Part shown: piece by piece, positions 1 to 47,186 of the stretch
Numbering within the stretch: position 1 is the first letter of the stretch
Layout: the number at the start of each line of letters is the position of its first letter
DNA from: Guyanagaster necrorhizus
Lineage: Eukaryota; Basidiomycota; Agaricomycetes; Agaricales; Physalacriaceae
DNA length: 64,000 nucleotides
Assembly (NCBI RefSeq): GCF_019112545.1
Contig: NW_025064912.1
Span: 269,049 to 333,048, forward strand
Direction: 5' to 3'
Position numbers and translations under genes: made by a program
Notes under the pieces: generated by a model
Seen by the model: only the letters and a program-made list of their open reading frames with translations
Database searches by the model: none
Told to the model about the DNA's origin: nothing

Positions 1-3000
1 GAGGTTGGTGATGAGTCGTGGGATGAGCTGAACAGCGCATTGTCCTCAGATGTTGACTGGAGTGATGTGAACTCCTTTGTTGACAAGCAATCGGATGCCA
101 CATCTGGCATGCTGACCTTGGAGGATGTATCTGCTTCTGAAGAGTCAGTCGCAGCTGTTACCAACACTGTAAACTCACCCGATGTTCAAATTCATACTGA
201 ACTCTATGACTCTGGCTGTACATGCCATATTTCCCCTTACCACGATGATTTCAACTCGTTCCAGTCTGTCCCGCCCAAGGCATTCCGTGCTGCGAACACT
301 CAAAAATTTTCTGCAGCTGGAAAGGGTGTGATGAGCATTGATGTGCCAAATGGTGCAAATGCGAGCAATCTGCAACTCACCAAGATCATATACTCTCCCG
401 AAGTTGGCTATACACTCATTTCAGTTGGCCGACTTGACGATCTTGGTTTCGAGTTGACTTTCAGTGGCGGAAAATGCACCATCCATGCACTAGATGGAAA
501 GGTCGTTGGGGTTGTCCCAAAAGATGATGGTGGCCTATATCGGGTTTGTCATGAGGGAGATTTGGCTGGGACAGCTGAGGAGATGCTTACTCTAGACCAA
601 TTGCACTCCTGCATGGGCCACATTTCACCTGAAGTTGCTCGCCGTCTGGTTGAAAAAGGCTTCGTGACCAGAGTAAAGCTCGACAAGTCATCTGGAGAAC
701 CATGGTTCTGTGAGTCATGTGTCTATGCTAAAGCTACATGAAAGCCAGTGTCTAAGGCTCAAGGGGGAGAACGTGCAACCGATATTGGAGGTGAAATTCA
801 CTCTGATTTATGGGGACCTGCACCTGTAGAATCCCTGCGTAAACACCATTACTTCATCTCTTTCATTGATGACAGCACTTGTTGGGCTTACCTTGAGTTC
901 TTACGCCAGAAGAGTGAAGCTTTCACAGCATACAAAGCCTATGAAGCTCACATCCACACTCAGCATGACTGCCCTGTAAAAATCCTCCATTCAGACCGTG
1001 GAGGTGAATACTTCGACAAAGCATTTGTCTTGCATCTGAAAAATGCTGGCACGGCAACGAAGATGACTGTGCATGATATGCCACAGCACAATGGGGTGGC
1101 TGAAAGGTATAATCACACAGTTATCGAAAAAGTCAGGGCTATGCTGCATTCAAGTGGCTTACCTCGCTTCCTATGGGCTGAGGCTGTTCACCATGCTGTC
1201 TGGGTCCTCAACAGAACATCGACAAAGGCTCTAGATGGAATGACTCCTTATGAAGCTGTCACAGGGAAGAAGCCAGATCTAAAAGGGTTGTGGGAATGGG
1301 GAGAGAAATGCTGGGTACACCTTGAGACTAAGGCTATGAAGCTGGGTGGCTGTGTATATAAAGGTCAGTGGATTGGATTCAATGAAACAAGCAATGGATC
1401 CCATATCTACTGGACAGAGAGCAAGACAGTGTCCATTGAGCAAAATGTCTATTTCGACACAACTCGTATTGCCACTGACGATCTTGAAGGGGAGGAAGAC
1501 ATTGAGCTACACAAGATTCTGTCAATGCCAAAAACTCAGCCCAATCCACCTACTGCAAAGCCATCACAGGTGTCACCTACCCCCAAAGTCCAGCCTACAG
1601 TCCAACCCATAGTTGAAGAAACCTGTTCCGGATGCATTCGAAAGCCTAGCCAGCAGGTGCTGGACCTCATCTCCAGCAAAGGCAGTGTATTGGCACACCC
1701 AAGCGATCCTGTGGTACCTGTTGGTGTTCAGTTACCAGTTGCCAATGAAAACAATGAACCTCTTGAGTTTGAGGGAGAAGGAGAGGCAGATTGGTTGATG
1801 ATACTCGAGGATGCTGACTTCCTTGAGGAGTATGCCATGGCCATTTCAACAGCTGATGCAGAAGCCTTAGAGCCATGCAGTCTAGCTGAAGCAAAGCATC
1901 AGCCTGATTGGCCTTTGTGGGAAGGTGCAATACAGGAAGAGCTTGCAACATTGAAGACTGCAGAGACTTGGAAAATTGTTGAAAAACCAGTTAGAGCAAA
2001 TGTCATGGGCTCGAAGTGGGTCTTTTGAATCAAGAAGGATGCTGAGAGAGGCATAGTCAAGTTCAAGGCTCACTTGGTAGCACAAGGGTTCTCACAAGTA
2101 TCTGGCATCGACTACTTTGACACTTATGCTCCTGTTGCAAAGCTTGCATCTATCTGTTCAATCCTTGCTATGGCTGTGGCACTCGACCTAGAGCTCCATC
2201 AAGTCGATATCAAGGGCGCATACTTGAATGGAAAGCTCACCAATGGAGAAATCATTTACATGCATCAACCTTCTGGCTATCCTGAGCCTGGCTCCCATCC
2301 TGGTCAAGTCTGCCATCTCATAAAGACTCTATATGGTTTGAAGCAGAGTGGTCGTTGCTGGTATCAATGTCTCGTTGAGATTTTAGTGGTGCAGCTGGGA
2401 TTCAAGCAGTGCGACATTGATCAAGCCATGTTTTACAAGCAGGAGGGCCAAAACTTGACTATCATTGCTGTCCATGTTGATGACTGCACTATCGCAGCAT
2501 CATCATTGCATCTAGTGTGAGAGATAAAGGAAGGTATGGCAAAATATGTGGAAGTCATGGATTTGGGGGAGCTGCACTGGATTCTCGGCATTGAGATCAT
2601 GTGTGACTGTGAGTCACACTCCATTTCTCTTTTCCAATGCTCATACATCGATGCCATTGTTCGTCACTATGGCTTTGAAGACCTCAAACCAGTCTCTACA
2701 CCAATAGATATTAATCTCCATTTGTCTTCCTTTCCTGCACCAGCCTCCACTCGAGAAATTGCAGCCATGAGAGATGTCCCTTACAGAGAGTCTGTTGGCT
2801 CCTTGATCTGGGTTATGCTTGGGACATGCCCTGATATTGCATTTGCCATGACAACAGTCTCGAAATATTCAATGGCTGCTGCAGAGGCTCATTGGAAGGC
2901 TGTAAAGCACATCTTTCACTATCTGAAGGGCATGAGAGATTACCAGCTGATGTTTGGGGGAAACGGAAAGGTTTTGCATGGTTATGTGGATGCTGATGGG

Positions 3001-3438
3001 AGCATGGCAGAGGATAGGCATGCCATTACTGGGTACGCTTTCATACTGAATGGTGGAGCTGTTTCGTAGTCGTCTAAAAAGCAGGAGATCGTCTCGTTTT
3101 CAACCACCGAGTCTGAATATGTGGCTGCAACTCATGCATCAAAGGAGGCACTCTGGCTTTGCAGTCTGCTCTCTCAGGTTTTCTCACCAATTACTGAGGC
3201 TACAACTTTATTCTCAGACAATCAGTCTGCTATTGTGCTCTCAAAAGATCATCAGTATCATACCTGAACCAAGCATATCGATATTCGCTTCCACTTCATT
3301 CGCTGAGTCATCAGTGAAGGCTCCCTTCATCTTGTTTACTGTCCTACTGAGGACATAGTTGCTGATGCTCTCACCAAGCCTTTATCTTCAGCCAAGGTGA
3401 AGCACTTTGCTACTGAGCTTGGACTTCGCTCTGCTTGA
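1..3438 (+). pseudogene. copia no. 1 Gag-Pol polyprotein with six in-frame stops
   Basis: A single reading frame is coherent from base 1 to the natural stop at 3436-3438. Visible domains are a GAG-pre-integrase His/Cys region (LHSCMGH ... CESC, about 600-720), an integrase core (SDLWGP, HSDRGGEY and NGVAERYN hold the D-D-E residues, about 800-1130), a copia-type reverse transcriptase (QVDIKGAYLNG, LYGLKQSG, VHVDDC, about 2040-2520) and RNase H (YVDADG, TTESEY, about 2980-3200). Stops are at 739, 2026, 2518, 3067, 3265 and 3304. Five are TGA where family conservation favours arginine (CGA). The sixth is TAG where tryptophan is expected. No frameshift was found, so decay is by transition and not by indel. 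Function is lost. Confidence 0.9.
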
Positions 3439-3445
3439 GGGAGAG

Positions 3446-3656
3446 TGTTGGATTAGCAAGCAGGAGCTCTGTCGTATCCTGCCAGCCAAGCTCAATACCT
3501 CTTTATGTCGGGATGGACTATATATATTGAATACAGTCTGTCAAGCACTCTCACTGTGTTTCTGCTTATCGCTATGCTGTGTGAGGGTGAGTATCTACTT
3601 ATATTACTTTGTTTATGTCACTGATTGGTATTCTATAGTCTACGTTATAGCTAACA
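3446..3656 (+). repeat. 3' LTR of copia no. 1
   Basis: The 211-bp segment begins TGTTGG directly after a purine tract that follows the pol stop, and ends CTAACA. A TATA-like run (TATATATA) lies near 3518-3526. The right edge is inferred from the terminal CTAACA only, because the partner LTR is not in the window. Confidence 0.6.
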
Positions 3657-3699
3657 GCATACTCTATTAGGTGCTACAAATGCGCGTCACTTTCTTAGA

Positions 3700-3801
3700 C
3701 TCTGATCCTAAAGAGGAATTACTATTTTGGTTCATGTACTTCTTGTTTCTTGTTTTATTCTTGTACTGCTGCCATCATGACGCCATCTCAAAGGTAATAT
3801 G
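3700..3801 (-). repeat. repeat copy C, left piece
   Basis: This 100-bp stretch is the reverse complement of the distal end of repeat copy A (about 31331-31430). It continues on the far side of the copia insertion at 8662. Compared with copy A it shows five differences, all of which give A or T here where A has G or C. This is the same bias seen in the adjacent 5' LTR. Confidence 0.85.
3797..3801. repeat. target-site duplication ATATG, left
   Basis: ATATG stands immediately before the 5' LTR and is repeated at 8662-8666 immediately after the 3' LTR. Repeat copy A contains a single ATATG at the equivalent, uninterrupted site (near 31330). Confidence 0.93.
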
Positions 3802-3948
3802 TGTTGAAGTAGCACACCCTCTATGTCGCTCTTATCTTACATAATCATAGCTACCAATACTGAAGATCAAAAGTCAACACTTACCAGCTTTTGATCTTTG
3901 ACTTCAGACCTGGCTTTCCCTGCTGTGCTACACAACCTGCTCTCAACA
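3802..3948 (+). repeat. 5' LTR of copia no. 2
   Basis: 147 bp, TGTTGAAG...CTCAACA. By eye it differs from the 3' LTR at 13 positions, all transitions. At 12 of them this copy has T or A where the 3' LTR has C or G, and eight of those destroy a CpG. Confidence 0.95.
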
Positions 3949-3960
3949 GGTTATGGGCCC
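3949..3960 (+). other. primer-binding site, initiator tRNA-Met half-molecule type
   Basis: GGTTATGGGCCC follows the 5' LTR without a gap. It is complementary to the anticodon stem-loop side of eukaryotic initiator tRNA-Met (GGGCCCATAACC), the internal site used by Drosophila copia, and not to a tRNA 3' end. The match is 12 bases. The next bases (TG) depart from the copia consensus. Confidence 0.85.
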
Positions 3961-4137
3961 TGTGCCTTACTAAGCCAAGCAAATTTTTTGTTTCCTCTTG
4001 TGAACCATTCACTAGACATTGAAGTCTTGCTTACTTTCCTAAGGGACATTACTATCCATTTGGAAGTCATATCCACCCATCACAGGCCTCCACACACTCT
4101 CTAACCCCAATGGTCTCCTTTTTTTTCTCACACCACA

Positions 4138-7100
4138 ATGAACAACTCAGATGTTGTCGACACCACCAAATGTGGCTTTCCCAACCTCCACGCTGGCAAC
4201 TGAAACCACTTTGCACCTTCGTTTGAGGCCTACATGTGTATCAAGAGGCTATTTGGCCACTTTGATGGCACCAAGGAGCCACCAGAGTAAGCCAACCCCA
4301 GTGAACCCACAAAGCTTGAAAAGAAGGAGACAAAAGCTTACCTTCAAGCTCATTCATCTGCAGCAGGATATCTCTGGCTTTGCATTGATGAATCACAGCA
4401 TGCTCACATCAGTCTCCTCATGGGTAAGCCCACAGCTATATGGTCAAAACTGAAAGACATTCACCAACAGCAAAAACTGGGCATTCATTTCAATGCCTAT
4501 GATGTCTTATTCAGCATTCAGAAGGATGATGAAGAGTCTCTCTCTACTCTCGTTGGATGTGTCTCACAAGCTATACAAGACATCAAAGCACTCTGGCCTG
4601 AAAAGTTCACCATCAATCAACTTGATGAAGAGCTTCAATCCATGACTCTCATCTGTGCCCTCCCATCCAATTACAACAATTTTGTGTTATCAGTCCTTCT
4701 CCTTCATTCTCTCAGTCTCAACAAACTCATTGCTGCCTTCCACACTGAAGAGATGCAGTGCCACTCTCATGACACCACTTCAGCAACATCATTCAAAGTG
4801 AGCACTGTCAGAGTCCAAGCCACTCATGTGGCATCATCTGATATCATCTGCAGCTGGTGCACCAACTCTGGACATACCGATGAGAAGTGTTTCAGCAAAA
4901 AGAAAGCCAAGGAGCAAGCTATACAGCATGTCCAGGAACATCAGAATACAAAATTGGGCAAGAAGGCAGGAGAAGCAAAGACAGAGAAGTCAAACATCAC
5001 AGAAGAGACTGCCAGCCAAGCAAGTATTGATCTCTTGTCCCCAGCATCATCTAACTGGAATATGGACACAGGCACTTTATCTCATATGAGCCATCATTGA
5101 GACTGGTTTCATGTCTGGACATCACATGTGGTTCCAATTTGGTTAGCAGACAATTCAATCATCTATTCAGTGGGCATGGGGACAGTTGTGTTTGAGCCTA
5201 AAGAGAAGAATAGAGAGGTCTGTGAGGCTGTTGAGTTCCAGGATGTACTGCATGTACCTGATCTTCAAAATAACTTGCTTTCACCCTTCCATCTTACATG
5301 TCATAAGAGATATGAGATCAACATAGCTGGATCATCTGTCCAGTTCTTTCAAGACAAAGCACTTTGTTTCTCAGCTACTGTCAACAATAACAATATTGGA
5401 TATCTTAATGGCATCACTTGCACTACAAGATCAGTAACCTCAAGTACTGTGAGCACCTGTCTACTTGATCTGACTCTATGGCATTGACGAACCTGTCACA
5501 GAAGCATAAACATTGTCTGGGACATGTACAAGAATCAGCTTGTCTTAAATATGAAGATGAACAATATGCAATCCAATCCTGACCCAATTTGCAAACCCTA
5601 TCTTATGGACAAGCACAGGTGATATAATATTCCTTGAGAACCCTCACTCCTTCCAACATGCCCTCTCACAATTGTATTCTCTGATCTTAAGAGATCTATA
5701 CCAGTTGCTACATCAGAAGGCTATTGCTACTGGATCACTTTTATATATAGTGCTCTGTATTTTTGGGCTGTTGCCTTGTTAAAGCACAAGAGTGATGCTC
5801 TGGCTGAATTTAAACACTACAAAGCCTATGCTGAAAATTTTCATAGTCTGAAAATCTTAGAGGAGCAAGACAATGGTGGAGGAGAGTATATGGATCATGA
5901 ATTTAATCAGTTATGCATAGAAGAAGGGATATCAAGGTGCCATACTGAGCCTGATGAGCCTTATCAAAATGGAATTGCAGAGCATGCAAATCATGATATT
6001 GCTGAAGGGGCTATTACTATGCTCTATGAAGCTTGTCTTTCTCCCTCCTTCTAGGGACTAGCAGTGCTTGCATTTGTATATGTGCACAACCAGTGCTCTA
6101 CAGCACCACTTCCTAAAACAATACTATACACTGTCTGGCACAAGAAGAAACCTGACATCTCTAACTTGCATGTCTTTGGCTGCTTAGCTTATATCCATGT
6201 CAAAAAGAACAAGTGACAAGGTCTTCAGCCATGCACCACCAAATGCATATTTGTTGGATATCCATCAGGTACAAAGGCATGGAAGTGCTGGAACCCTGTA
6301 ACTAAGAAGTTCATCATATCAAGCCATGTCATTTTTGATAAGCAGGTGTTTCCAGAAAATACAAAAACTCTTATCAACCCTTTCAGTGACCTATTTTCTT
6401 CACTCTCAAATCTGTCAGATTCTCCTATGCTGCCTGATCAAGGGGGAGACCTTAACAACAATGATTTTCCACCTCCAGAAAATTCTCCAGCACCAAATCC
6501 CTTACCTCCTTTAAGTCCATCACCTCTAGTATCACTCCTTCCCTATGATGTTATAACTCCTCCTGGCTCATCATTCAATGGATCTCTCTCAGACCTAACT
6601 CCATCACCATCACTACCACCTCCAACAGACCTAGGCAAACATGAATACAGAATACATGATAATAGCTTATATGATCCCAGCCCTGGTTATAGTCATGGAA
6701 TGTGCTGAAATATTAACAATGATGATCATGTGAGAGATACAGAGGATCAAGCACACACAGCCTTTATGGAAGACAAAACTATTCTTGAAGGCATAGCTTT
6801 CTCCAGCCAGACAATAGAGCATTTGACAATGGAGGAAGGACTGGAAGTTGCATTTGAAAGCATGACAGAAGCAGCTTACAAGGCATCTACACATGATGAT
6901 GAACCTAAATCCTTCTGTGAAGCTATGAAACATTCTCCAGAGGAAGCTGCAAGTTGGTATGAAGCTGCTATGCAAGAGATACAGGCACTTGTTGAAAATG
7001 GTGTCTTTGAATTGGTGAAATGCCCTCCAAATCAAAAGGCAGTTGGGAGTTGCTGGATATTCAAAGTGAAATGCAATGCTGATGGATCAATTGAGTGCTA

Positions 7101-8493
7101 TAAAGCAAGGCTTGTTGCAAAGGGATACTCACAATGACCTGGCTTTGATTACACTGAAACCTTCTCTCCAATGCCAAAATGGGCTGCTCTACAAGCTGTC
7201 CTGGCACTTGGTGCCCTTGAGGATTTAGAGCTATGGAGTGTCGATATCTCATCAGCATTTCTCAATGGTGAGCTGACAGAAGAGGTGTATATGGAGCAGC
7301 CAGAAGGTTTTGAGGAGAAAGGAAAAGAATGGGTCTGGCACCTCTTCAAGTCTCTATATGGACTAAAGCAAGCTGGAAGAGAATGGCACAAAAAGCTACA
7401 TGCAACATTGATCAATGCCATGGGTTTTGAATGGGTAAAATGCAAACATAGTGTCTGGATTTACAAGAGGGACAGTGAACATATCATCATTCCAGTCTTT
7501 GTTGATGATATGACCATTGCCACAAAGACACCAGATGGCATTGCAAAGGTCATCAATGATCTCAAGAAGCACTTCAAGCTTCAAGACTTGGGTCCAATGT
7601 CTTACCTCCTTGGTGTCGAGATCAAGCATGACCGAGCCAACCAAACACACACTCTCTCCCAGTGCCAATACATCTTAGACATTCTGCAATGTGCAGGAAT
7701 GGCCGACTGCAACCCTGTTCTGACACCTTTGGATCCAAACATAAAACTTACAGCAGATCAGTCTCCCAAAACACCAGAGGAATATGAGACAATGCAGACA
7801 ATCCCATATCTGAACATGCTCAGCTCTGTGGCCTACCTCTCTATTGCTACCAGGCCCGATGTTGCCTATCCTGTGAGCATACTCTCACGATTCAGCAAAA
7901 ACCCTGGCACAGCCCACTGGGAAGCTCTCAAACAGCTTTTACACTATCTGAAGGGCACAGTTGACTATCGCATTGTCTACTCTCCCAACTCTGAGTCAGA
8001 TTCACCAGTCTTTGACTTCAAGACTTATTGTGATGCAGATCATGGGGGTGACAAAGATAGTGGGTGTTCCACAAGCGGCTTCATTGTCAAAATGGGTACT
8101 GGAGCCATTAGCTGGATGAGTCATCTTCAGGCATTTGTGACACTCTCAACAACAGAGGCAGAATACATTTCGGCTGTATCTGCCAGTCAGGAAATCCTCT
8201 GGCTTCACAACTTGTTCACAGAGTTTGGCTATACTACATTCACCAATGCCTCAGTCCTCTATATCGACAACGAGTCTGCTCTGTCGGTTGCTCGAAACCC
8301 TGAACATCATGGCCGGGTTAAACACCTTGACCTTCGATTCTACTGGCTGCGCGATGAAGTTGAGAAGGGGCACATCCATGTGGTCCACTTATGAACCAAC
8401 AATATGCCAGCCGATGCCTTGACAAAGGGATTGGGAAGAAAGAAGCTCAGGCACATGATTACCTTACTCGGACTTGTCTCAATACCTCCGTAG
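4138..8493 (+). pseudogene. copia no. 2 Gag-Pol polyprotein with eleven in-frame stops
   Basis: One frame runs from ATG 4138 to the natural TAG at 8491-8493 with no frameshift. Domains in order are a UBN2-type Gag (about 4200-4750), a CCHC knuckle (CSWCTNSGHTDEKC near 4850), a protease remnant (NMDTG near 5060), integrase (DNGGGEYMDHEF and QNGIAEHAN near 5870-5990), reverse transcriptase (VDISSAFLNGE, LYGLKQAGREW, VFVDDMT at 7240-7520) and RNase H (DADHGG, TTEAEY, DNESALS to 8290). Stops are at 4201, 4288, 5098, 5485, 5620, 5635, 6052, 6214, 6706, 7135 and 8392. Each fits one C:G to T:A transition: mostly CGA to TGA, plus CAA to TAA and TGG to TGA or TAG. The last 1.2 kb is almost uninterrupted. 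Confidence 0.92.
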
Positions 8494-8504
8494 ACATGTT
8501 CGGT

Positions 8505-8514
8505 CGAAGGGGAG
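8505..8514 (+). other. polypurine tract of copia no. 2
   Basis: GAAGGGGAG directly abuts the 3' LTR start at 8515, the expected place and composition for plus-strand priming. Confidence 0.8.
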
Positions 8515-8661
8515 TGTTAAAGTAGCACGCCCTCCATGTCGCTCTTATCTTACATAATCGTAGCTACCAATACTGGAGATCGAAAGTCAACGCTTACCAG
8601 CTTTTGACCTTCGACTCCAGACCTGGCTTTCCCCGCTGCGCTACGCAACCTGCTCTCAACA
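8515..8661 (+). repeat. 3' LTR of copia no. 2
   Basis: 147 bp, TGTTAAAG...CTCAACA, the same length as the 5' LTR with 134 of 147 positions identical by eye. It keeps the CpG sites that are mutated in the 5' copy. Confidence 0.95.
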
Positions 8662-8666
8662 ATATG
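8662..8666. repeat. target-site duplication ATATG, right
   Basis: This is the partner of 3797-3801. Removing the element and one ATATG copy recreates the sequence seen in repeat copy A. Confidence 0.93.
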
Positions 8667-9813
8667 ATGCGTGTTTCTTCGACCGCGAACTCGGTAACTG
8701 CGCCCTAATTCGAACAAGCTCGCGATATCTTTCAGCATGAACACGATGCACACACTCGACGATGGTATCAACCGGTCCAACGAGTCGACGAGCTTGCTGC
8801 CTGCTCTTTGAAGGGTTGTACTTTATACCGACGAAAGGAGGTCCTTTTTGGGAGCAGGCCCAGAATTTCAACAACCGTAGCAGGAAACGGAAGTTCAGAT
8901 CTCCATCATGTGGACCGGACTTGAAGTGATCCGGCTACGCGTCTACGGGGCACATTGAAGACTTTATCGCAGTTTTGTCGGATGCTCACTCCATGTTCCG
9001 AAGGGATGGTGTATAACGGTGAGAATCTTCCCTTCATGTTCGTTCTCGGTCCTAAATACAAGCAGGGTCTCAGCGCGATTCCTCGACGATGACAAGACCA
9101 ATCGCTCTGTATCAGCAGATGAAGTTCTAGGCACATCACATACTCCCTCGAACGCAGTACTGGGATATATGTCAAGAGCAGACTGAAGGCATGGTGACCG
9201 ATGCCGGTCAACCGACCAGAAATAAGAGATCAGGAAGTTGAAGCAGTAATGGGTATGGCGGTTTCGTTTTTGCGGTAGTGTTTGTTTTTCATATTTGGAT
9301 AATTGGCAGGACAGACGAATTGTTCCCTACTTCATTAACCGGTTTGTTGGCGAGGATCATGGCCGGAAACTTTTGCGAAAGCCTGTTATGATGCATACGA
9401 GTCGCTCGAGGGTCACTGACTTGATCGTGTCGATGATGCTACCGGTGAGTATTTCTCGTTTATCTACAACTGCCTCTGATCCAAAACTGCGGCTAGGTTG
9501 TATGATTCCACCTGGTTTCCAAACTGACCACGGAGTTACTAATCGAAATCTTCAAAGCATAAAACGCACGTTCTGCAAAGTTTCATCATCGACTACATTT
9601 TTCGTCATCACCTTGCTCCCTTCGTCCTCGCACCAATCCCTTCCCTCTTTTTGTTAACTACCAGTAGATCCGCCAACGCTGGAAGTGGGCTCTTTGGTAC
9701 GGGAATCGCAGGACGCTGTTCAATCCACGGCCGTTCATCGGGTGGATTGGGCTCAGGGGTAGACATCCGAAGGTTGGATGTAGGTGGTTGGCCGGTGGTT
9801 ACGACAACCATTG
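8662..9813 (-). repeat. repeat copy C, right piece
   Basis: Nearly identical to the reverse complement of copy A (30182 to about 31333), with about one difference in the first 200 bp. Homology stops at 9813. The next base begins HET-like coding sequence, so this copy truncates a HET gene. It carries degenerate versions of the small gene annotated in copy B, with an extra base in the exon that reads RRIVPYFINRFVGED. Confidence 0.85.
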
Positions 9814-28147: not shown

Positions 28148-29366
28148 TCAAGGCGCGGCACTGAAGGTAGAAGCAAACCATTCTACGATCCTCTTCTCGC
28201 CCGGATCCTTCTTCCAAGCAAAATCCAGGATGGGCTCAATATGTAGCCGATTCTCCTGCTCCAGAAACTCGATGTTCTCATGCACCGGGAGGAGATACTT
28301 CTCGTGCAGCTTCTTGATCCCTTGCAAAATACATTCCAACTCGCCACACGAGATCAAGACCCTCCCCACGAGCCCATCCAATCCCGCGAACCAATTCTCA
28401 GGTCCTTCGAGGGGATCCAAAAACGCGATCTCGGAATCGGGAACATCTTTGACGATGGTTTCGCACGCAGGGCGACCTATCTTCGCAGAGATGACATCAT
28501 ATTTGTACCGAACTCTCATTGCACCCAGGTCGCATTGTGAGTCGCTCTTCATTGACACCCAAGGGGATATGAGACATAGCCCACGGAACCGCGCATTGTG
28601 TGGGAGGCCGAAAGGCGGTTCGACGGAGGGGTGACGATGAAGAATGTGCGATAGCAATGACAGCGTGAGATTGCCTCCAGCGGAATCCCCGGACATAACG
28701 ATATTCTCGGGGAGTACACCGGCTGCTAGAAGGAACTGTAGGGCTTCTCGGGCTTCCCGGAGTGGAATAGGAAACGGATTCTCCGGCAACAGCTCTGCAT
28801 ATGAACGCCGTCAGAAATGATCCAGAATCCTCTCAGACGAACGGATCTTACTATAAGCCAAAATCACTACCCCAACAAAGATGCCGCGCTTCTCGAGCTC
28901 TAATTGCAAGTGTCTACAAAAAGCCATATGGGTACCGGTACAGCCAACTTGGTACGCCCCGCCTAAAATCCAACGTCAGCGCCACTTCGACGCGGCAACA
29001 AGTGAACAAGATGCACACCGTGGCAGTAGAACAAAACCTTATCCAAACGCCTGGGTCCAATCCACAACAAGTTCGCGCCATCAGGAAGTTCATCTACCAC
29101 TGGAGTCATATTAACTGACTTAATCCATTTCATATACGCGTCGATAGAGGACGGCGTCTTGAAGCCATGGTCGACTAGATATCGAACCGCTGCACCAAAG
29201 CATACTCTCTTCCACTCCCGTGAACGTTCAGCATTGAAGAACGAAGCACATAGTCGCTTTAGAACGTAAAGCCCTGTCAGACAATGCATCAGTAAAGATA
29301 ATTAAACAGTAATAGCTACTCACACAAAAAGACCATCGCAACCGTCTTTGGAATCCTCGTTATCAT
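28148..29366 (-). CDS. alpha/beta hydrolase fold-3 protein, 351 aa, four exons
   Basis: Minus-strand exons 29366-29324, 29273-29019, 28962-28852 and 28794-28148 join in phase through introns of 50-57 bp. The N-terminus (MITRIPKTVAMVFLWLYVL) is a likely membrane anchor. The oxyanion motif HGGAY (99-103) is interrupted by intron 2 exactly as in the 23206 gene, and the nucleophile motif is GDSAG (Ser174). Conserved SPWVSMKSDS and RLHIEPILDF blocks complete the fold. The last exon is 647 bp in both genes. An ester hydrolase role is family knowledge and the substrate is unknown. A piece of its second exon recurs at about 53485-53640 and a broken full copy at 50741-52800. Confidence 0.88.
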
Positions 29367-29747
29367 GGTGGTGACAGAGAAAGGGCTTGGTCCCATTTAA
29401 TTTTTCAACGTGGGACCTTATCATCGGCACAGCTTAAGGTTCATGATGCCGATGTAATGGTCAGCCCGCTGAGGTGATTGATCGTTCCAGTCCGCTGCTT
29501 TGGGCTCAGGCGCCGACGGACGACAAAATCACTCGAAACGGGAGCAGTTGGTGGAGATATAGGATTCGGATACACCCAACGTCGATAGGTCAATCGCAGT
29601 AGCAACACGCAGTCGCTCCTGAAAAAATACGTTTTCAGCTTGAGAAGGAGCAATACAAGGATAAACTTACAAAACTGCACTAGTATAATTGATTCCACAT
29701 CCTCATCAGGAACGACGATTCGCTTTGAACCGCACGGCCACATATCG

Positions 29748-31430
29748 AAGTGGATGAGAATGAAACAAAATTTTATCGGACCTTGATTCACTAGGCCACG
29801 GATACGAACCAAGAGAACATGCCTGTCCACAAGAGATAAATTCTTGACCGATGGGAAAGCGAATGTAGAGCAAGAGTGTGTAAGCTTGATCGAAACAAAA
29901 CAGCTCAGGCAAGAGAAATAAACAGACGACGGAGATACTTACTAATGGCCCAGATCAAGGCAAATCTGAATCTTGGACCAACAACCGCCCACACTCTCAA
30001 TGTCCTCGGAGCCGCGATCCTTGAACCTGAAACGTTGCGCAGGTGTAGGTCTAAAAATTGCGTCGTGACGGTCCATGAGCCCGAAATGCCGGATCCTTGA
30101 TAAACAAGAGTCAGCAAACCGTGCCTGGGAAAAATTAATTGCATACCTCCACGAGCATGCCCACAGCCACTAGCCAAGGTACAATGATTGTCGTAACCAC
30201 CGGCCAACCACCTACATCCAACCTTCGGATGTCTACCCCTGAGCCCAATCCACCCGATGAACGGCCGTGGATTGAACAGCGTCCTGCGATTCCCGTACCA
30301 AAAAGCCCACTTCCAGCGTTAGCGGATCTACTAGTAGTTAACAAAAAGAGGGAAGGGATTGGTGCGAGGACGAAGGGAGCAAGGGGATGACGAAAAATGT
30401 AGTCGATGATGAAACTTTGCAGAACGTGCGTTTTATGCTTTGAAGATTTCGATTAGTAACTCCGTGGTCAGTTTGGAAACCAGGTGGAATCATACAACCT
30501 AGCCGCAGTTTTGGATCAGAGGCAGTTGTAGATAAACGAGAAATACTCACCGGTAGCATCATCGACACGATCAAGTCAGTGACCCTCGAGCGACTCGTAT
30601 GCATCATAACAGGCTTTCGCAAAAGTTTCCGGCCATGATCCTCGCCAACAAACCGGTTAATGAAGTAGGGAACAATTCGTCTGTCCTGCCAATTATCCAA
30701 ATATGAAAAACAAACACTACCGCAAAAACGAAACCGCCATACCCATTACTGCTTCAACTTCCTGATCTCTTATTTCTGGTCGGTTGACCGGCATCGGTCA
30801 CCATGCCTTCAGTCTGCTCTTGACATATATCCCAGTACTGCGTTCGAGGGAGTATGTGATGTGCCTAGAACTTCATCTGCTGATACAGAACGATTGGTCT
30901 TGTCATCATCGAGGAATCGCGCTGAGACCCTGCTTGTATTTAGGACCGAGAACGAACATGAAGGGAAGATTCTCACCGTTATACACCATCCCTTCGGAAC
31001 ATGGAGTGAGCATCCGACAAAACTGCGATAAAGTCTTCAATGTGCCCCGTAGACGCGTAGCCGGATCACTTCAAGTCCGGTCCACATGATGGAGATCTGA
31101 ACTTCCGTTTCCTGCTACGGTTGTTGAAATTCTGGGCCTGCTCCCAAAAAGGACCTCCTTTCGTCGGTATAAAGTACAACCCTTCAAAGAGCAGGCAGCA
31201 AGCTCGTCGACTCGTTGGACCGGTTGATACCATCGTCGAGTGTGTGCATCGTGTTCATGCTGAAAGATATCGCGAGCTTGTTCGAATTAGGGCGCAGTTA
31301 CCGAGCTCGCGGTCGAAGAAACACGCATCATATTACCTTCGAGACGGCGTCATGATGGCAGCAGTACAAGAATAAAACAAGAAACAAGAAGTACGTGAAC
31401 CAAAATGGTAATTCCCCTTTAGGATCAGAG
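29748..31430. repeat. dispersed repeat, copy A
   Basis: 29748-31090 matches copy B (55006-56316) in the same orientation, and 30182-31430 matches copy C (3700-9813) inverted. The repeat is not transposon-like at its ends and holds gene fragments. One minus-strand piece reads as a membrane segment (VVTTIIVPWLVAVGMLVE) ending at a good GTATGC donor, and another as the small gene seen whole in copy B, here broken by one extra base and a TAA. The site corresponding to the copia insertion in C is uninterrupted here. It is probably a segmental duplication of a gene-family locus. Confidence 0.8.
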
Positions 31431-32445
31431 CCACGAGACCAGACGATGCAAGCTTCGGTGCTAGCCGTCCTGGTTCTGTCGAGTCCCCCGCCAGTTGATG
31501 GCATCCTCATCATGTTTTTCTCTTCCACCAGAACATGAATCGCTGGGTAAAACCGATATATTGTGCACTTTGCTGTTTAGTCGCTTTTTCAGCCTATCTT
31601 TACTTCCTCGTCTTCAAGTTCGACCTGTGCGAAGACAGCAACGGGCTATGATTTATCAAAATGGATGGCGGAGTGAAAGAAATAAGTAATCTGGCTGTAC
31701 GCCGGAGGAAAAAAATATCCCATTAACAAGGATTATAGGCTGCGCATTACAGGCTGGAATGAGAGAAGGCAAATTCTCGAAGCCCTCGGATCTTTGACAG
31801 TTTTTTTGTCCATATTTATTTACTCTGTGAGCTACTTGGGATACCTTGTATAGCCGCTGTTCACTGTCCAGTGTTAAAGACTTTTTCCCCCGAAAATTTA
31901 TTGCGTTACACGACCGTTAAGGGCAGCGTTGGTTCCACCACTTTACTTACCTGTAGATCAGCAGGTACTCCGCCGAAGATATTGATTCGCTACATTTCCA
32001 TGACTCGGATCTTGGAACCATATCGCGCCACGGATCCCTTTATAAGGTTCATCATTGACAGTTTGAAACGCCCATCTGAGCTACGTATTTGTCGTGGAAA
32101 ATTTGTAGCTCCTTCGCTTCACCGAAAGATGCAAACCAGCTCAATCAGTTATTTACGCAAATGACAATTTTAAATGAAATACCCGGCTTGTTTCTGGGAA
32201 TACAGTCCATTCAGATAACTAAGTAGCCTAAGGATACAAAAGAACGTAACACGCTAGGCAATACTGGTGTACATTTCACATAACAAGGCAACAAGTCAAA
32301 GAGCAATGCAGAAAAAGCGATAATAACGGTATACAGTAACAGTGTGAGAGCGATAGCGAGGGCATAGCAAATAAATATGGAAAGGGAATACACAGCAAGA
32401 AAACATTTTTTTACAAAAAAAAACTGCGGATAATGATTCAGTTCA
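31431..32445. other. intergenic, nothing recognised
   Basis: AT-richer sequence with short frames only. No repeat partner was noticed. Confidence 0.5.
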
Positions 32446-39558: not shown

Positions 39559-39976
39559 TGTTAGGCCCAAGCGTCACGTGCAGTTAATCACGTGATAAAC
39601 GATTGCACCTCGCACTTCGGGTGATCAATCGAGTCCACGAGTCTGACTACCTGCGGTGTGTCACAAGGCTGTAGGAAGCAGCTCGAGAGTAGAATGGTAT
39701 GAATAAACTTTAGCTCGAGGCTGGGGTGTACCAGCGAGAGCTACCGGTCTTAAATACTGTACAGGTAATGCTAATAATACAACTACTTATTGTGTCGGTC
39801 TGTGTCCATGGTGCCCGTTGTCCTTGGGCATCGTTGTTGTACATAAAAGGGTCATTGTGTGTTAGCGAGCATTCCGGTATCTAGGCGGTTCGGTTGTGCT
39901 TACTAAGCCCTTCTCACGGTTTCGTGCTAAGCGTAAATAGGAGTAAAAAGGAAAGAAAAAAGGGAAAATCGTAACA
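39559..39976 (-). repeat. 3' LTR of the gypsy element
   Basis: 418 bp. In sense orientation it begins TGTTACGATTTTCCC and ends GGCCTAACA. It is identical by eye to the 5' LTR except for one missing G in a purine run near its sense start. Confidence 0.95.
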
Positions 39977-39990
39977 TTACCCCCTCGTTT
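39977..39990 (-). other. polypurine tract of the gypsy element
   Basis: The sense strand reads AAACGAGGGGGTAA directly before the 3' LTR, the expected position for plus-strand priming. Confidence 0.65.
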
Positions 39991-40010
39991 AAGACCATCG
40001 TCCCGATGGT

Positions 40011-43000
40011 TTAATTAAGGGAAAGCTCATAATCATGTATGGCTGTGTCCGCGTTCATGTATTTTTCGTTAACCCACTGGTTAGATTCTGGGCCGTAACC
40101 CTTCCAGCTGACGAGGTAATCGACCGTTGTCGTCATACCGCCTCCCTTTGCTTTGACGCGCCGGAGTTTGTGATCCAGGACTTGGTCGATTTCGAAGTGT
40201 TCTTCGTCGTCAATTAAGTCTGGTGGTGGGGGAGGTGGTCGTTCCTGGTTAGGAAATGCTGGTGCTATGTACGGGTTTAATAGGGTTTCGTTGAAGACGT
40301 CGTGAATTTTCCAGGTAGCTGGTAAGCGTAATTTATATGCGCTTGGTCCGACGGCTTTGATGACTGTGAACGGTCCCGTTCGTTTGTCATCAAGTTTCTT
40401 TTTTGGTCGTGGTAGGTGGAGGTTTGTCGTGTCCAACCATACTTTGTCGTTTGGTTGATATACGCGACCCGGCCGTCGGTGTTTGTCGTAGCTTCTTTTC
40501 ATTGATGCTGCGGCCTTTTCCAGCGCTGTTTTTGTCTCATTATGAATCTTTTCCATGTCGGCTGCGAAGTTTGATGAAGCGGGTGTTGTGGTTCGGACGC
40601 GAGTGGTATGTGTGACGTGTGGGTGATATCCGTGGTTCACGAAGAATGGCGTTTTCCCCGTAGCGGAATGTATCCGGTTGTTATGTTGAAAGGCTGCCAG
40701 TGCAAGCCATTCCGTCCAGTCATCCTGTCGATAGTTGATGAAGAGTCGTAGATACTTTTCGATCTCTTGATTTACGCGTTCTGTTTGCCCATCTGTTTGG
40801 GGGTGATAGGTGGTAGACGCGTTTTGTTTGATGTTTAGGATGCGGTATAAGTCGGTTATGAACTTTGAGACGAATTGAGGCCCCCTATCTGAGATGATAA
40901 CTTGGGGCATCCCATGCTTGGCATACACTTCGTCTCGGAGGATTTTGGCCCACCCTTCGGAGTTTAATTCCGTGGAGCATGGGATTGGGATAATTGCCTT
41001 GGAGAATCGATCCACGATTACAAGTATTGCGTCATACCCATTGCATTCGGGTAGTCCAGTGATCATGTCGACCGAAATGTGTGTCCAAGGGGCCGATGGT
41101 ACTTCGTTAGGATGTAACGGTGCTGCTCGAGCTTGTGTGGACGACTTCCCTCATTGACAGGCTTCGCAGGCCTTTACGTATGCTGTTATATCGTTTCCTA
41201 GTTTCGGCCACCAGTACTCTCGGAGTACGAGCTCCTTGGTCTTGGCGATACCCGGGTGTCCTGCTGTTATGTGGTCATGGCAGGTGGCGATAATTTCGCC
41301 GTGTAGTTGATGGTCCCAGGGAACGTAGATGCGTCCGTCATAATGGATTAATCCATCCCTTTTTGTCATTCCCCGCTCATGGTTTAGTGAGGGAGCCACC
41401 CTTTGGTCCCATTTGTGACTGTCTCGTGTCGCGCTTTTGATCCGTTCATGGATCTCCTCTTCTGTCGGCATTATCATGGCTCGGAAATGTTCCGGCCTTA
41501 GCAGTGTTACTCCCATGTTGTCCGCTCCCCCTTGATCATGGTCTGCTCGTCGGCTCAGTAAGTCGGCTTTCTTGTTGGCTGTTCCTGCCTTATGATGCAG
41601 GGTGTACTGATATTGACTGAGCTCAGTTACCCAATGTGCTTGTCGTCGATTGAGTTTCTGTGGCTGTCGGAAGTAACGTAGGTTCTGGTGATCTGTCCAG
41701 ACTTCGAACGTTTCTTCGGCGCCAATAAGGTAGTGTCGCCACTCTTCAAGGGCGAGCATAATAGCAAGCAATTCCTTGTCGTAGATTTCGTAGTTTCGTT
41801 CTGTTGTGGTTAAAGCCTTGGAGAGGAACGCGACGGGCCGCCACTTCCCGTCCTGTTCTTGGGAGAGGACGGCTCCTATTGCTCCCTCACTGGAGTCAGC
41901 TTCCACTCGGAACTTCCCTTCTTGGGTGGGAATGGCTAATATCACGTCTTCCGCCAGTCGTCGTTTAAGGTTATGGAAGGCGGTCTGCTGAGAGTCCCCA
42001 TTGCCAGGGAGCATTGCCCGTTAGCTGTGTCATTGGGCGGACGATTTTGCTATAGTCGCGGATGAATCGTCGATAAAAGTTCGTGAATCCAAGGAATGAT
42101 TGTAACTCCTTTTTCTTGGTGGGTTCCGGCCATTCGGCGACCCCTGCTACTTTTATCGGGTCCATTCAGATGCTTCCTTCGCTGATGATTACACCAAGGT
42201 ACTCCGTTTCCAACACCTCGAACTCGCACTTTTCTGCTTTAAGGAATAGTTTATGTTTCCTCATCAGGGCCAGTACCTCTCGTACTAGTTCTCGGTGTTC
42301 CGCCTTCGTTTTTGACATAATTAGAATGTCATCGAGGTAAATTGTTACCTTTCTGGTGGAGATGAGGTTTTTAAAGATGTCGTTCATCATCCATTGAAAG
42401 GTGGCGGGGGAGTTCGTGAGTCCGAAGAACATTACTGTTGGCTCGAACAGTCCCCGATTGGTGCGGAAGGCGGCCTTCCATTCGTCCCCCTCCTTGATCC
42501 GGACGTTATTATATCCCCATCGTACATCGAGTTTGGTATAATATTTGGCGCCCCGAAGCTTGTCCATTAGTTCTGAGATTAGGGGTAATGGATAACGGTT
42601 TTTAATGGTCATCTCATTAAGCTTCCGATAGTCTTGGACGGGCCGGAGCTTTCCATCCTTCTTTTTGACAAAGAAGAAGGGAGAGGCCATGGGAGATTTC
42701 GAGGGGCGGATCCTTCCGGTGGATAGGTTCTCTTCCAGGAATTTGTCTAGTTCCTGCTGCTCCTGGTAACCGAGGGGATAGGTTTTACAGTCCAAGTTGG
42801 CGTTGGCATTAGGGATTAGCTCGATAGCATGGTCCCAGGGCTTTGGGGGAGGTAACTCGTCGAAACTCTCCTTCTCAAAGAGATCCCTATAGTCTCGTGC
42901 CCACTCGGGTACCATTTCCTCAAACGTCTTCTCGTCCCTTCCTTGATTTGCTTTGGCGGCCATATCATTGGCATGGTGAATGGCTCGTATGTGGATCTCC

Positions 43001-43898
43001 TTCTGGAGGTCCACTGCAAGTATCGTTTCCCCATCCTCCATCTCCTCATCCCACCGGTCCTCCGGATCTTCGTCTGGTAATTCGAACGGGATCTTCCTGC
43101 ATCTGCACCTGGCGAAGGTGATCCGACCGGTTTTCCAATTGATCAGTGGGTTGTGGCGGATCAGCCAGTCGTGACCGAGGAAGAGTTCTTTGGTGCCTAG
43201 GTCGGTTACTGCCAAGTCGATCCGTTCGGAGTGGTCTCCAATGGTCAACCTGAGTTCGACGAATTCTGTGATAGAACCGGCCTGGTTCTTTGTTCCGTCG
43301 GCATTATAGACTGGTATTGGTGTGGCTGTCGCCCTTGTGGGTAGATGGTGTTGTTCGACGAAGGCTCGATTAATCGAGCTCCCTGTGCAACCACTGTCGA
43401 TTAGGGCGGTCACTTGATGTATGGCGCGGGAAGTCAGCACCTCAATCTGTCCTTTCGTGGTTAGATCTCGTCCAGGGGTCTTTGCCCGTAAGATGTATTT
43501 TTTGGGCCCCCGGAGTTCGTCCAACCATTCAAGGGCCCGATTGCGTTCGGATTTTCTGATCCCTTCGATCAGATCGTCTACCACTTCTTCGGCCCTAGTC
43601 CGATGGATCCAGTTTCGAAGTACGGCTATCGCCGTGGCTTCGTCCTTGGCATCCCTGATGGCCCTCCATGTCCATTCCGTATCGAATGGTTTGAGCCATG
43701 TGGTAGGACTCTCTGTCCTTGTTCAGCCTATAGGCGTTTGAGTTCCTTTTTGCGATTCATTGGTGTGTTTGGTGAATGACTGGGGTATATTCGAATGCGT
43801 AGTAGGCGACATGGATGTAACTACAGGAGCACTATCAGTCCGACTAGCGGCTGTCACTGACACACCATTAGGTCCTTTGGCCAGCCCAGTGGAATCGC
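40011..43898 (-). pseudogene. gypsy Pol (protease, RT, RNase H, integrase, chromodomain), broken
   Basis: Minus strand. Protease shows ALIDSGCTGS (about 43390), reverse transcriptase YLDDILIMS (about 42320), RNase H the block VEADSSEGAIGAVL (about 41900), the integrase zinc region HDHITAGHPGI ... CEACQ (to 41151), the integrase core SDRGPQF and QTERVNQE (about 40750-40890), and a C-terminal chromodomain (YLVSWKGYGPESNQW, about 40060). TGA stops occur at 43723-43725, 42166-42168 and 41151-41153, each where arginine (CGA) would restore the family pattern. A one-base loss near 42010 shifts the frame between PWQWG and DSQQTAF. The rest of pol is well conserved. The chromodomain is known to direct integration to heterochromatin. 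Confidence 0.92.
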
Positions 43899-46800
43899 TC
43901 ACTGGCTGGCCCCGTCTTTTACTTCCTCAATCTTGGTCTCCTTCCCAAGGTCCTCTTCTTCCTTTTGGAGCTCGGCGATCTGTGCCCGTATGTCTTCTCG
44001 GGTTCTTTTCTTCTTCGGGCAGTCCTTTGCCATGTGCCCCTTCTGCCCGCAATTGAAACACTTTCCTTCCTTCTTTAGGCGATCGATGTCCATTGGCTTC
44101 CCGGTCCCGGTGTAAGTCGTGCCGGTTCCGGTTTTCTGTGCGCTATATGTCGAGGTGGTGGCGGACGAGGGGCCCGGGGATTTTCCGGCAGTTTGCCCCG
44201 ACTTGTTCGGGGTTGGCGGGGCTGGCTTCTTGGAATATTCCTGCAGCGTCGTCGCCTCCGCTTTCTGCCTTTGTCGCTCCTTGTACATCTCAACGATCCT
44301 TTCCTTCCATTCATCGTAGCCGACGGGCATCAGCATCTTGACACCCATCGCTGAGATCATTGTGAGGTACGAGGAGGGGACCCCTCGTTTGAGCGCCTCT
44401 ACCATCCTTCCGTCGTTCGCGGTATCCTCTCTGATGCCGGCGAGTTTCGCGAGGCGTTCTAGCTCGTCGAAGTAGTCCGTCGCCGCCTTATCTCCCATTT
44501 TGTATTCCTTGATCTTCTGTTTGTGAACTTCTTGTACTGCAGGATCAATGAATTTGTCGTTTAGCATCCGCTTGAATACCGGCCATGAGGGATATCGGTA
44601 ATGCTCCCTGGTGGCGGATCGGAAGTTCGGGGAGATAAGAATCCACCATGTTTTGGCCTTGTCTTCCAAGTATGAGGTAGCAAACGCGACCTTGTTCATG
44701 TCGGTGCCGATGTAACCAATGTAGACCTCGAAGTATTGCTCGCAGTCTACCAGGAAGCGGTCGATGTCGTCTGAAGCCCCCTTGAAGGGGCGGGGCTTTC
44801 GGAGAAGATCGGGGTGGCACTGCAGGACTTGGGCATTATGAGGTAGCGCCCCCATCGGGTTGGGCCATTCGTCGAATGGTGGCTGTTTCCATTCTCTTGG
44901 TGGTCCTGGAAATGAGTGAAGCGACTGGTCGTCAGCGACCGGGCTCTCTTTTGGGGCTTCGACGCGAACAATGACCCCATCCCGCACTGTAAATCCGAGG
45001 CGAACCGCTTCGGGGTCATCTCGGATGGGTTCTTTTCCGCTTGACTCCGCCTGGTCCGGGGGTGGCTGTCCCCCAAGGAGTCGGCTTCCTTTGCCGACCC
45101 AGGGATTTTGCGTTTCGGCGAGGTGCCAAGCCGGCCGTGTTCGGGTTCGGACGAGCCGTGAAGCCGTGCTTCGGATTGATGGACTATCATCAGTCCGAGC
45201 TCGGATCGAGGGGGCCGTGTATATGGCTCGTTTCGGCACGACGGGTGGGGTTCGTGGTAGTGGTTGAATGTTGGTCTGTGGTTGAAATGGGGGCATCGGC
45301 CCGAGCGGGTCCTCGGGATGCCGGCGCCCATATTCCTTCCAGGCGTATTCCGTCGCGGCATACTGTAAAATCCTTTTCTTTTCCATTGAATCTGCGTACC
45401 GATATTCAAGTCCGAGGGAGGTAGCCAACCAACGGGCGTCTCCCCATAAAAAGAGCATCCCTTGCTCGTACAACTCCTTGTATTCTCCCTGTCTGCTCCT
45501 TTCAATTTCTTCCCTTAATGCTTCTTCATCTGGTCGTTGTCCTGCGTATGTCATGAAATGTTGAGGATTAAAGGGGCCTTCCTCGCCGTCCTCGCTGTCC
45601 TCGCTGTCCCCGCTGTCCTCGCTGTCCCCCTCGAGGAGGGAGGCGGCGAGCTGGTCGGAGGTGAGAGGTTTGAGTCGTAGCGTTGCTGGGGAGCCCCCCG
45701 GTGTGACTGGGTCCTGCTTCTCCTTCGGCGATGGGGCGGACTGGTACAGGTGGGACTCCATAGTACCTTGTTCCTCCTGCCGTTCTCGCTCTCTCCAATT
45801 CCTCGCTATAGAGGCCGAAGTTTCAGTAGAACTCTGGAAGGAGGAACTGGTGGGCGACCCGACTTCCCAGGAATCGTCGGAGGGCGAGGTCGGAGACGTG
45901 GGCGTTGTCAGGTACCCGGAGCCCGTAGGCATCGAGTATGGAGTCGACGTCGGACGCGATGGTGTCTGTTCGGCTGGGGTATTGTAAGTCGGGAGGGGGA
46001 GGTCCTCCTCCCCTCCTGATTGCTTCGCTTCTTGTGACTGGGCTTCCTGGCCCTGTCCAGGGGTCGTCGTCGGAGCCTGGCTCTCTGAAAGGGGACTCGG
46101 TCCCTGGGGACCGGAGTCCGTACTGTGCGGGGGAAGCGGAGCCCATCCTTTCTGCCTCTTCTCGTCGTCTCTGGGCTCGTCCTTGTCAGTCATACTCGGC
46201 TTCCTCATACTCCTGCTGAGCTTGTGCCCGTGCATACTCAGCGAGCTCTTCTCGAGCTCGCTCCTCTTCTGCTCTACGCTGCTGGGCCTGCTGCTGCTGT
46301 CATAGTGCGTCGTTGTAGTCAAATGGGACGGTGAGGTCCCAATCTGGGAATACCCTTCAGATAATCCTGTCCCTCGCGATTCTCCCCCTTGCGCTGGCAG
46401 TGCCAATCTCTGGCTCACTACCGACATGGAGGTGTCGGATCGGATCCCCGGCCGCTGTGATGGCAATCTCAACGTTGGCGTAGTCAGGGTGTATGTTTCT
46501 TCCGTGGGGGTTCTCAACCCCCAGCCTGCTAATGGACGCACTGGAGCCGGAGTTTGGCTCGGTAGGTTCGTAGAGGGAGTCCCGGGGCGAGTGGGGGGTA
46601 GTCCTGATTCTCGAAGCCACCCGAGAGGCATCACGGGAGTCCCGAGCATGGTCTCCAATCCCTGGGGTGCGAGAGGCGGTGGAAGGGCCATCGGGGGCTG
46701 GAGGGAGGTCGTGGGGGATCTCCTGGGTGACCTGGGGGACCGTCGTGGTCCATGGGTTTCGGAACCCTGTGAGGTTATGGTCCCGGTTTCTACTGTCAGG

Positions 46801-46928: not shown

Positions 46929-47145
46929 GGAAAGGGAGATCCGGGGTTACGTTTTGGAGGATATGCTGAATTTGTTGAAATGCTTGGTAGTGCCTGACAA
47001 TCCAAGCGGTAATTGATTGTCGCCCTCGGCAACAAGTGATGATGGCAAGAAGGCTGAGTAGCGTTCCAATGATGGAAGCTATAAGGTCAAAGAAGTCGTG
47101 ATTGAGGTCGCAGGTTGTAACTGGAGTCATTCGGTTTCTCAGCAC
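46357..47145 (-). CDS. extra 5' ORF of the gypsy element with a membrane segment, 262 codons
   Basis: It starts 28 bases after the primer-binding site, upstream of and overlapping gag by about 570 bp in a different frame. Residues about 18-43 form a hydrophobic segment (FFDLIASIIGTLLSLLAIITCC), and the rest is hydrophilic and Pro, Ser and Arg-rich. No family is recognised. It may be a genuine extra gene, the real N-terminus of Gag reached by frameshift, or an accident of GC-rich overlapping frames. The membrane segment lies in the non-overlapping part, which favours real coding. Confidence 0.5.
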   Translation of the reverse strand: MLRNRMTPVTTCDLNHDFFDLIASIIGTLLSLLAIITCCRGRQSITAWIVRHYQAFQQIQHILQNVTPDLPFHDIPPSARTTFQPEEFPVSEAGHSRQDTGSPQEEEGHRYPPRRPDSRNRDHNLTGFRNPWTTTVPQVTQEIPHDLPPAPDGPSTASRTPGIGDHARDSRDASRVASRIRTTPHSPRDSLYEPTEPNSGSSASISRLGVENPHGRNIHPDYANVEIAITAAGDPIRHLHVGSEPEIGTASARGRIARDRII

Positions 47146-47172
47146 AATTGGGCTTGAGAAAGGGAAGGAGGA

Positions 47173-47185: not shown

Positions 47186-47186
47186 T

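What the first reader, a model, noticed from the sequence alone, without database searches (positions are those of the whole stretch)
3802..8661. 5' LTR mutated far more than 3' LTR of the same element
The LTRs were identical at insertion. By eye they differ at 13 of 147 sites, all transitions, and at 12 the 5' LTR has T or A against C or G. CpG is almost absent from about 4.2 to 7.6 kb and returns toward the 3' end. Mutation has therefore struck one side of a single element, with a boundary inside pol. Ordinary LTR dating would misread this age.
Basis: seen in the sequence. Interest (0 to 1): 0.75.

Follow-up and report, generated by a model that had tools for sequence, protein, structure and literature searches.

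The report
Retrotransposon hypermutated except at its edge
In what is probably a mushroom-group fungus, a jumping gene was peppered with C-to-T mutations everywhere except the few hundred bases that touch ordinary DNA, so the twin repeats at its two ends, identical when it inserted, now look very different in age.

Summary
Confirmed. The 147-bp LTRs (3802-3948, 8515-8661; TSD ATATG) differ at 13 sites, all transitions, 12 with T/A in the 5' LTR; C/G is the majority state in other copies at 11 of the 12. The element lies 102 bp from another Copia insertion, so its 5' LTR is interior to a 10-kb island and its 3' LTR is at the edge. The 102-bp host spacer between them lost 3 of 4 CpGs relative to an empty-site duplicate in the window; the outer host flanks lost 0 of 89. 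In 13 family copies with both ends resolved, LTR asymmetry follows flank CpG content, in both polarities (6 agree, 0 oppose, 7 ties). Ten clean LTR pairs show 103 transitions and 0 transversions (all 13 pairs 150:14), against 54:40 in a CpG-normal duplicate. Best reading: CpG-preferring cytosine hypermutation confined to a silenced domain that spares roughly the outer 0.4-0.7 kb next to ordinary DNA. Sidedness comes from the neighbourhood, not from being 5' or 3'. It is a variant of known basidiomycete RIP-like hypermutation; methylation was not measured, and homology-triggered RIP is not excluded.

The parts
3802..3948 (+). 5' LTR, hypermutated (1 CpG)
8515..8661 (+). 3' LTR, spared (9 CpG)
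3797..3801 (.). target-site duplication ATATG, left copy
8662..8666 (.). target-site duplication ATATG, right copy
3949..8514 (+). Copia internal region: gag-like frame 4420-5100, RVT_2 frame 7171-8394, otherwise broken by stops
8262..8661 (.). spared edge of the element: 21 of 23 CpG sites known from other copies are kept
   Evidence: 13/15 plus 8/8
3700..3801 (.). host spacer between the two Copia elements; 5 of 5 differences from the duplicate are T/A here, 3 of 4 CpG lost
1..3699 (+). right part of neighbouring Copia insertion A (C33:267774-272747, TSD CTCTG; its first 1,275 bp are masked); last 253 bp (3447-3699) are a repeated LTR
8662..9813 (.). right host flank, CpG-normal, no CpG lost relative to the duplicate
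30182..31700 (-). inverted duplicate of the host sequence without either insertion (empty site)

Best explanation
A Copia LTR retrotransposon inserted once (TSD ATATG) 102 bp from another Copia element, giving an island of about 10 kb in ordinary host DNA. The island became a silenced, probably CpG-methylated domain. Inside it cytosines mutate to T at a greatly raised rate: CpG far more than CpC or CpA, and these more than CpT. The domain does not reach the outer 0.4-0.7 kb where the island meets ordinary DNA. The 5' LTR lies in the interior and was hit; the 3' LTR lies at the edge and was not. Shown: single insertion, direction, context, edge-sparing, and dependence on neighbours in sister copies. 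Inferred: that the domain is 5mC heterochromatin kept by the DNMT1-like and DNMT5-like enzymes of this genome, and that deamination of 5mC, perhaps enzyme-assisted, is the mutating step.
For: TSD and LTR differences; direction by 25 other LTRs; spacer lost 3 of 4 CpG, outer flanks 0 of 89 (Fisher p 3.1e-5); LTR CpG follows flank CpG at 31 ends (rho 0.70) and within 13 elements (rho 0.85, p 2.7e-4; 6 agree, 0 oppose, 7 ties); exact sign-flip 64/8192, the lowest value the set allows; retention falls inward from CpG-normal edges (0.69 to 0.25, 11 ends) and is 0.02-0.07 at all distances from CpG-poor edges (20 ends); 103:0 transitions to transversions in ten clean LTR pairs against 54:40; non-CpG changes 20 v 1 on the CpG-poor side in the four strongly asymmetric elements; DNMT5-like, two DNMT1-like loci.
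Against: No methylation data. Two ends with CpG-normal flanks are nevertheless mutated (L057 5', flank 0.71, LTR 1 CpG; L042 3', flank 0.56, LTR 1 CpG). L015, an LTR without adjoining element, keeps 7 CpG though its left 500 bp have o/e 0.27. The CpG-poor flank of L044 is not a recognisable repeat. Elevated non-CpG mutation is more than simple CpG methylation predicts. A second family could not be tested.
Confidence: 0.7

Rival explanations
1. Homology-triggered RIP: duplicated DNA is recognised, probably before meiosis, and mutated, with mutation tapering where homology between copies ends.
For: Repeats are the target, the spectrum is nearly pure C-to-T, six LTRs without adjoining element (147 bp, perfect TSD) keep 7-8 CpG each (these loci were drawn by identity to a CpG-rich LTR, so they lean towards intact ones), as a length threshold would predict.
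Against: Element ends next to CpG-poor neighbours show no rise (0.03 retained in the LTR at 20 ends), although homology ends there too. The right host flank, a 99% duplicate over 1,152 bp, lost no CpG; a CpG-normal Gypsy element with at least 39 relatives is unhit (o/e 0.94). Both may be too young to have met the process. RID was not identified, but one methyltransferase fragment (L062) is unassigned.
Confidence: 0.15
2. Ordinary slow loss of methylated CpG over a long time, with no special mutator.
For: CpG is the main target (64 of 103 changes in 20 of 147 columns). Such decay is the usual account of CpG signatures in fungi (PMC4352252, PMC13297926; passages).
Against: No transversion among 103 changes while CpG-normal host duplicates show 54:40; own element against the 18 copies has 0.0-1.2 transversions per 100 sites in any segment while CpG is nearly gone; non-CpG cytosines mutate on the same side (20 v 1).
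Confidence: 0.12
3. Chimera: the 3' end came later from a younger copy by gene conversion or recombination.
For: Only the 3' end is intact; other intact 3' ends exist.
Against: Perfect TSD; transversion distances to other copies do not drop at the 3' end; the 3' LTR has a base seen in none of 25 other LTRs; the host spacer, outside the element, shows the same mutation; the relation to flanks recurs in both polarities.
Confidence: 0.02
4. Assembly or sequencing error.
For: No reads could be inspected.
Against: The directional, context-specific pattern recurs in independent copies on different contigs.
Confidence: 0.01

Closest known systems
CpG-biased RIP-like hypermutation of transposons in Basidiomycota (PMC4352252, PMC4014442, PMC6980582; passages seen)
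   Same: C-to-T changes with CpG bias in transposons of fungi with Masc2/DNMT1-type enzymes.
   Different: Here the changes are shown to follow domain edges and neighbours within single insertions, with age-matched LTR pairs as control; CpC and CpA are also hit.
RIP of Ascomycota (RID/DIM-2), with leakage into neighbouring DNA
   Same: Nearly pure C-to-T hypermutation of repeats; short DNA between repeats is hit.
   Different: CpG, not CpA, is preferred; a 99% host duplicate is unhit; no RID identified.
MIP (Ascobolus) and CpG methylation of transposons (PMC13297926, PMC4165359; passages)
   Same: CpG preference, size threshold, coextensive with the repeated domain; deamination may follow.
   Different: MIP methylates without mutating; methylation was not measured here.
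Escaped LTRs and overestimated LTR ages in RIP-bearing Mycosphaerella graminicola (PMC4522978; passages)
   Same: One element with mutated interior and identical LTRs; the authors warn that RIP inflates LTR ages.
   Different: There both LTRs escaped and no cause was given in the passages seen; here one LTR escapes, depending on what lies outside it.

Membership tests
Copia-type LTR retrotransposon | Two direct LTRs with 5-bp target-site duplication | tested here: met
Copia-type LTR retrotransposon | Copia reverse transcriptase (RVT_2) and Copia gag | tested here: met
   RVT_2 145.5 bits (cut-off 31.6); gag 26.8 bits, just under its cut-off of 27
RIP (repeat-induced point mutation, ascomycete type) | Excess of C-to-T over transversions in repeats | tested here: met
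   103:0 in ten clean LTR pairs, 150:14 in all 13, control 54:40
RIP (repeat-induced point mutation, ascomycete type) | CpA preference | tested here: not met
   CpG leads by far; outside CpG, CC 21, CA 14, CT 4
RIP (repeat-induced point mutation, ascomycete type) | Duplication is what triggers mutation | tested here: inconclusive
   99% host duplicate and a multi-copy Gypsy element unhit, but both may be too young
RIP (repeat-induced point mutation, ascomycete type) | RID/Masc1 methyltransferase present | tested here: inconclusive
   PF00145: 6 exon-level hits in 5 loci; DNMT5-like, two DNMT1-like, DNMT2-like, one unassigned
Basidiomycete CpG-biased RIP-like hypermutation | CpG-biased C-to-T in transposons | tested here: met
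Basidiomycete CpG-biased RIP-like hypermutation | Host is a basidiomycete | tested here: inconclusive
   DNMT5-like plus two DNMT1-like loci, HET and DUF6699 proteins point to it; species not determined
5mC-linked mutation of a silenced domain | 5mC present over the mutated zone and absent over the spared edge | not testable with these tools
   no methylation data

The most novel reading that the evidence does not exclude
This fungus has a cytosine mutator that reads chromatin domains rather than sequence duplication: it works through DNMT1/DNMT5-type machinery without RID, hits CpG first and CpC/CpA next, and leaves in each old transposon a fossil of where the silenced domain ended, to within a few hundred bases, so that the two ends of one insertion can differ about 25-fold in accumulated mutation (49 v 2 changes in the four most asymmetric elements).
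Probability: 0.33. Interest if true: 0.7.

Novelty: new variant of a known kind. Interest (0 to 1): 0.52.

Why it matters
LTR pairs are the standard clock for retrotransposons. Here the clock depends on the neighbourhood: the pair shows 13 changes, of which 1 (site 5) is clearly on the spared side and site 15 is open, so a date from the pair is about 6.5 times the one implied by a single change on the spared LTR (arithmetic). The LTR pair also becomes a built-in, age-matched test of how silenced domains raise the mutation rate, and CpG retention maps the domain edge without methylation data.

Tried and rejected
A 5'-specific process (transcription, strand, LTR role): rejected, since L041 and L058 show the mirror polarity. 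Chimera or gene conversion: rejected on TSD, transversion distances and spacer. Family-wide low CpG of the interior as the whole cause: partly true, since each of the 18 fetched copies is depleted inside (even L053, o/e down to 0.31), but the LTR pairs show change after insertion. The class 'non-CpG' was inflated by CpGs lost on opposite strands in the two LTRs; redone. LTR loci of minus-strand hits were read in the wrong orientation; one search replaces it. Pairs L043, L050 and L051 were dropped from the clean set because their alignments hold gap columns or doubtful ends; with them the ratio is 150:14, 11 of the 14 transversions in L051. Two small controls, 137 bp (7:3) and the right flank against its duplicate (7:1), were computed and agree only loosely with the larger ones. 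One search's private-change counts were not used, because they count only sites where all other copies agree. Rfam and tRNA scans of the window gave nothing. A repeat of the test in the Copia A family failed for want of sequence. Papers: ten searches were answered, of which I saw listings, and passages of eight papers; none of these passages describes neighbour-dependent LTR asymmetry. PMC8016269 and PMC12543289 were seen but carry no weight here. Horns 2012 is not held. No protein-homology search, structure prediction or viral/genome collection scan was made.
Full report
The element. Window 3802-8661 holds a Copia LTR retrotransposon with 147-bp LTRs and a perfect 5-bp target-site duplication, ATATG. 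A 407-codon open frame at 7171-8394 matches RVT_2 (145.5 bits) and a 226-codon frame at 4420-5100 matches Copia gag just under the cut-off; the rest of the coding part has no open frame of 150 codons. The window is G000:C33:269049-333048 of a 53.3-Mb assembly in 109 contigs. HET and DUF6699 proteins, a DNMT5-like exon (its one PDB match is 7r76, E 1.7e-78; the entry calls it Rad8, and that it is Cryptococcus DNMT5 is recalled) and two DNMT1-like loci suggest a fungus, probably a basidiomycete of the Agaricomycotina; the species was not determined.

The observation. The LTRs differ at 13 of 147 sites, all transitions; 12 have T/A in the 5' LTR. Among 25 other LTRs, C/G is the majority at 11 of these 12 sites; site 15 is open, and site 5 is a private change of the 3' LTR. 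CpG o/e along the element, 5' to 3', is 0.17, 0.11, 0.07, 0.04, 0, 0, 0.03, 0.25, 0.56, 1.1. Of CpG sites seen in at least two other copies, the 5' LTR keeps 1 of 8 and the 3' LTR 8 of 8; the step lies between element positions 4160-4460 (2 of 12) and 4460-4713 (13 of 15).

The neighbourhood. The host sequence has an inverted duplicate at 30182-31700 without the insertions. Against it one sees two Copia insertions in a row: A, 4,974 bp, TSD CTCTG (C33:267774-272747; its first 1,275 bp are masked), then 102 bp, then this element. So the 5' LTR is inside an island of about 10 kb and the 3' LTR at its margin. The 102-bp spacer differs from the duplicate at 5 sites, all T/A here against C/G there, and lost 3 of 4 CpGs. 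The flank left of A (273 bp) and right of this element (1,152 bp) lost 0 of the duplicate's 89 CpGs (Fisher p 3.1e-5). These flanks do differ from the duplicate, at 11 and 8 sites; at 10 of the 11 and 6 of the 8 the duplicate has T, so those changes do not point to mutation of the flanks here.

Sister copies. One search lists 26 long internal matches including this one; 18 others were fetched and 7 were not. All 18 are CpG-depleted inside; their ends differ. L041 and L058 keep CpG at the 5' end and lost it at the 3' end; this element and L044 are the reverse; L046 and L053 keep both ends; several lost all. At 31 resolved ends, LTR CpG o/e tracks the CpG o/e of the 500 bp outside (rho 0.70, p 1.2e-5). 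In 13 elements with both ends resolved (11 with identical TSDs, L044 with one mismatch, L043 without), the difference between LTRs tracks the difference between flanks (rho 0.85, p 2.7e-4; 6 agree, 0 oppose, 7 ties). An exact sign-flip test on retention over 700 bp gives 64/8192, the lowest value that this set allows. Exceptions at single ends are L057 5' and L042 3'. Retention falls from 0.69 in the LTR to 0.25 at 1.3-2.4 kb inward from CpG-normal edges (11 ends, these two included) and is 0.02-0.07 at every distance from CpG-poor edges (20 ends). The CpG-poor neighbour of L041 is a repeat, that of L058 partly, that of L044 has no other match; they stay CpG-poor (o/e 0-0.18) for the 3-4 kb further read.

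The spectrum. Ten clean LTR pairs have 103 transitions and no transversion; all 13 pairs have 150 and 14, of which 11 transversions are in L051, whose LTR alignment is doubtful. Host duplicates of normal CpG content give 54:40 over 1,249 bp, and 41:29, 46:25 and 50:27 over 896 bp each. Fisher p for 103:0 against 54:40 is 5.5e-16. Of the 103 changes, 64 lie in the 20 columns that were ever CpG and 39 outside (CC 21, CA 14, CT 4). In the four strongly asymmetric elements, picked for that, 49 changes are on the CpG-poor side and 2 on the other; outside CpG columns 20 and 1. So the mutated side did not only lose CpG; other cytosines there mutate faster too.

Interpretation. The pattern needs a process that changes C to T, prefers CpG, acts through a domain, and stops a few hundred bases inside the outer edge of that domain. 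A silenced, CpG-methylated domain with spontaneous or enzyme-aided deamination fits. The genome has candidate enzymes: six exon-level PF00145 hits in five loci, DNMT5-like, DNMT1-like (two), DNMT2-like and one unassigned. [quoted passage not shown] Duplication alone does not seem to be the trigger: a 99% host duplicate and a CpG-normal Gypsy element with at least 39 relatives are unhit, although both may be too young. Homology-triggered RIP therefore stays a rival.

What is known. CpG-biased hypermutation of basidiomycete transposons has been described and tied to Masc2-like enzymes (PMC4352252), and reported in Rhizoctonia (PMC4014442) and Tricholoma (PMC6980582, which cites an earlier report of no RIP in Agaricomycotina). 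Overestimation of LTR age through RIP, and one element whose LTRs escaped, are in PMC4522978. I saw passages of these papers only. The neighbour rule for LTR asymmetry did not turn up in the searches named in Tried and rejected. The finding is thus a well-controlled new variant of a known kind.

Noticed in passing
window 39559-47486: A Gypsy element with repeats identical over the 300 bp reported, CpG o/e 0.94 and long open frames (gag, RT, RNase H, integrase, chromodomain); at least 39 relatives at 82-98% (40 of 1379 candidates scored). It looks recent and unmutated.
   Followed up: partly
L002, L003, L005, L007, L008, L009: Six LTRs without adjoining element and with perfect TSDs keep 7-8 CpG each: short lone LTRs seem to escape mutation. 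L002 and L003 share TSD and flank values, so may be one duplicated site.
   Followed up: partly
L015 (G000:C30:410556-410702): A lone LTR with 7 CpG although the 500 bp on its left have CpG o/e 0.27; an exception to the neighbour rule.
   Followed up: no
Copia A family: G000:C2:1663359-1668461, C13:587658-592763, C13:766011-771115: In these three likely pairs the 5' copy matches the 253-bp LTR whole, while the 3' copy matches in pieces spread over about 335 bp, as if it held an internal duplication; two LTRs of one element should be alike.
   Followed up: no
window 8661-9813, 29047-31430, 53483-56232; also C33:339328, C3:1495952, C13:1353212: A low-copy host repeat, inverted and direct copies at 90-99% within 50 kb, CpG-normal.
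   Followed up: partly
L062 (G000:C4:2211595-2211828): A cytosine-5 methyltransferase fragment; one piece of it matched no solved structure and it is not clearly DNMT1, DNMT2 or DNMT5.
   Followed up: partly
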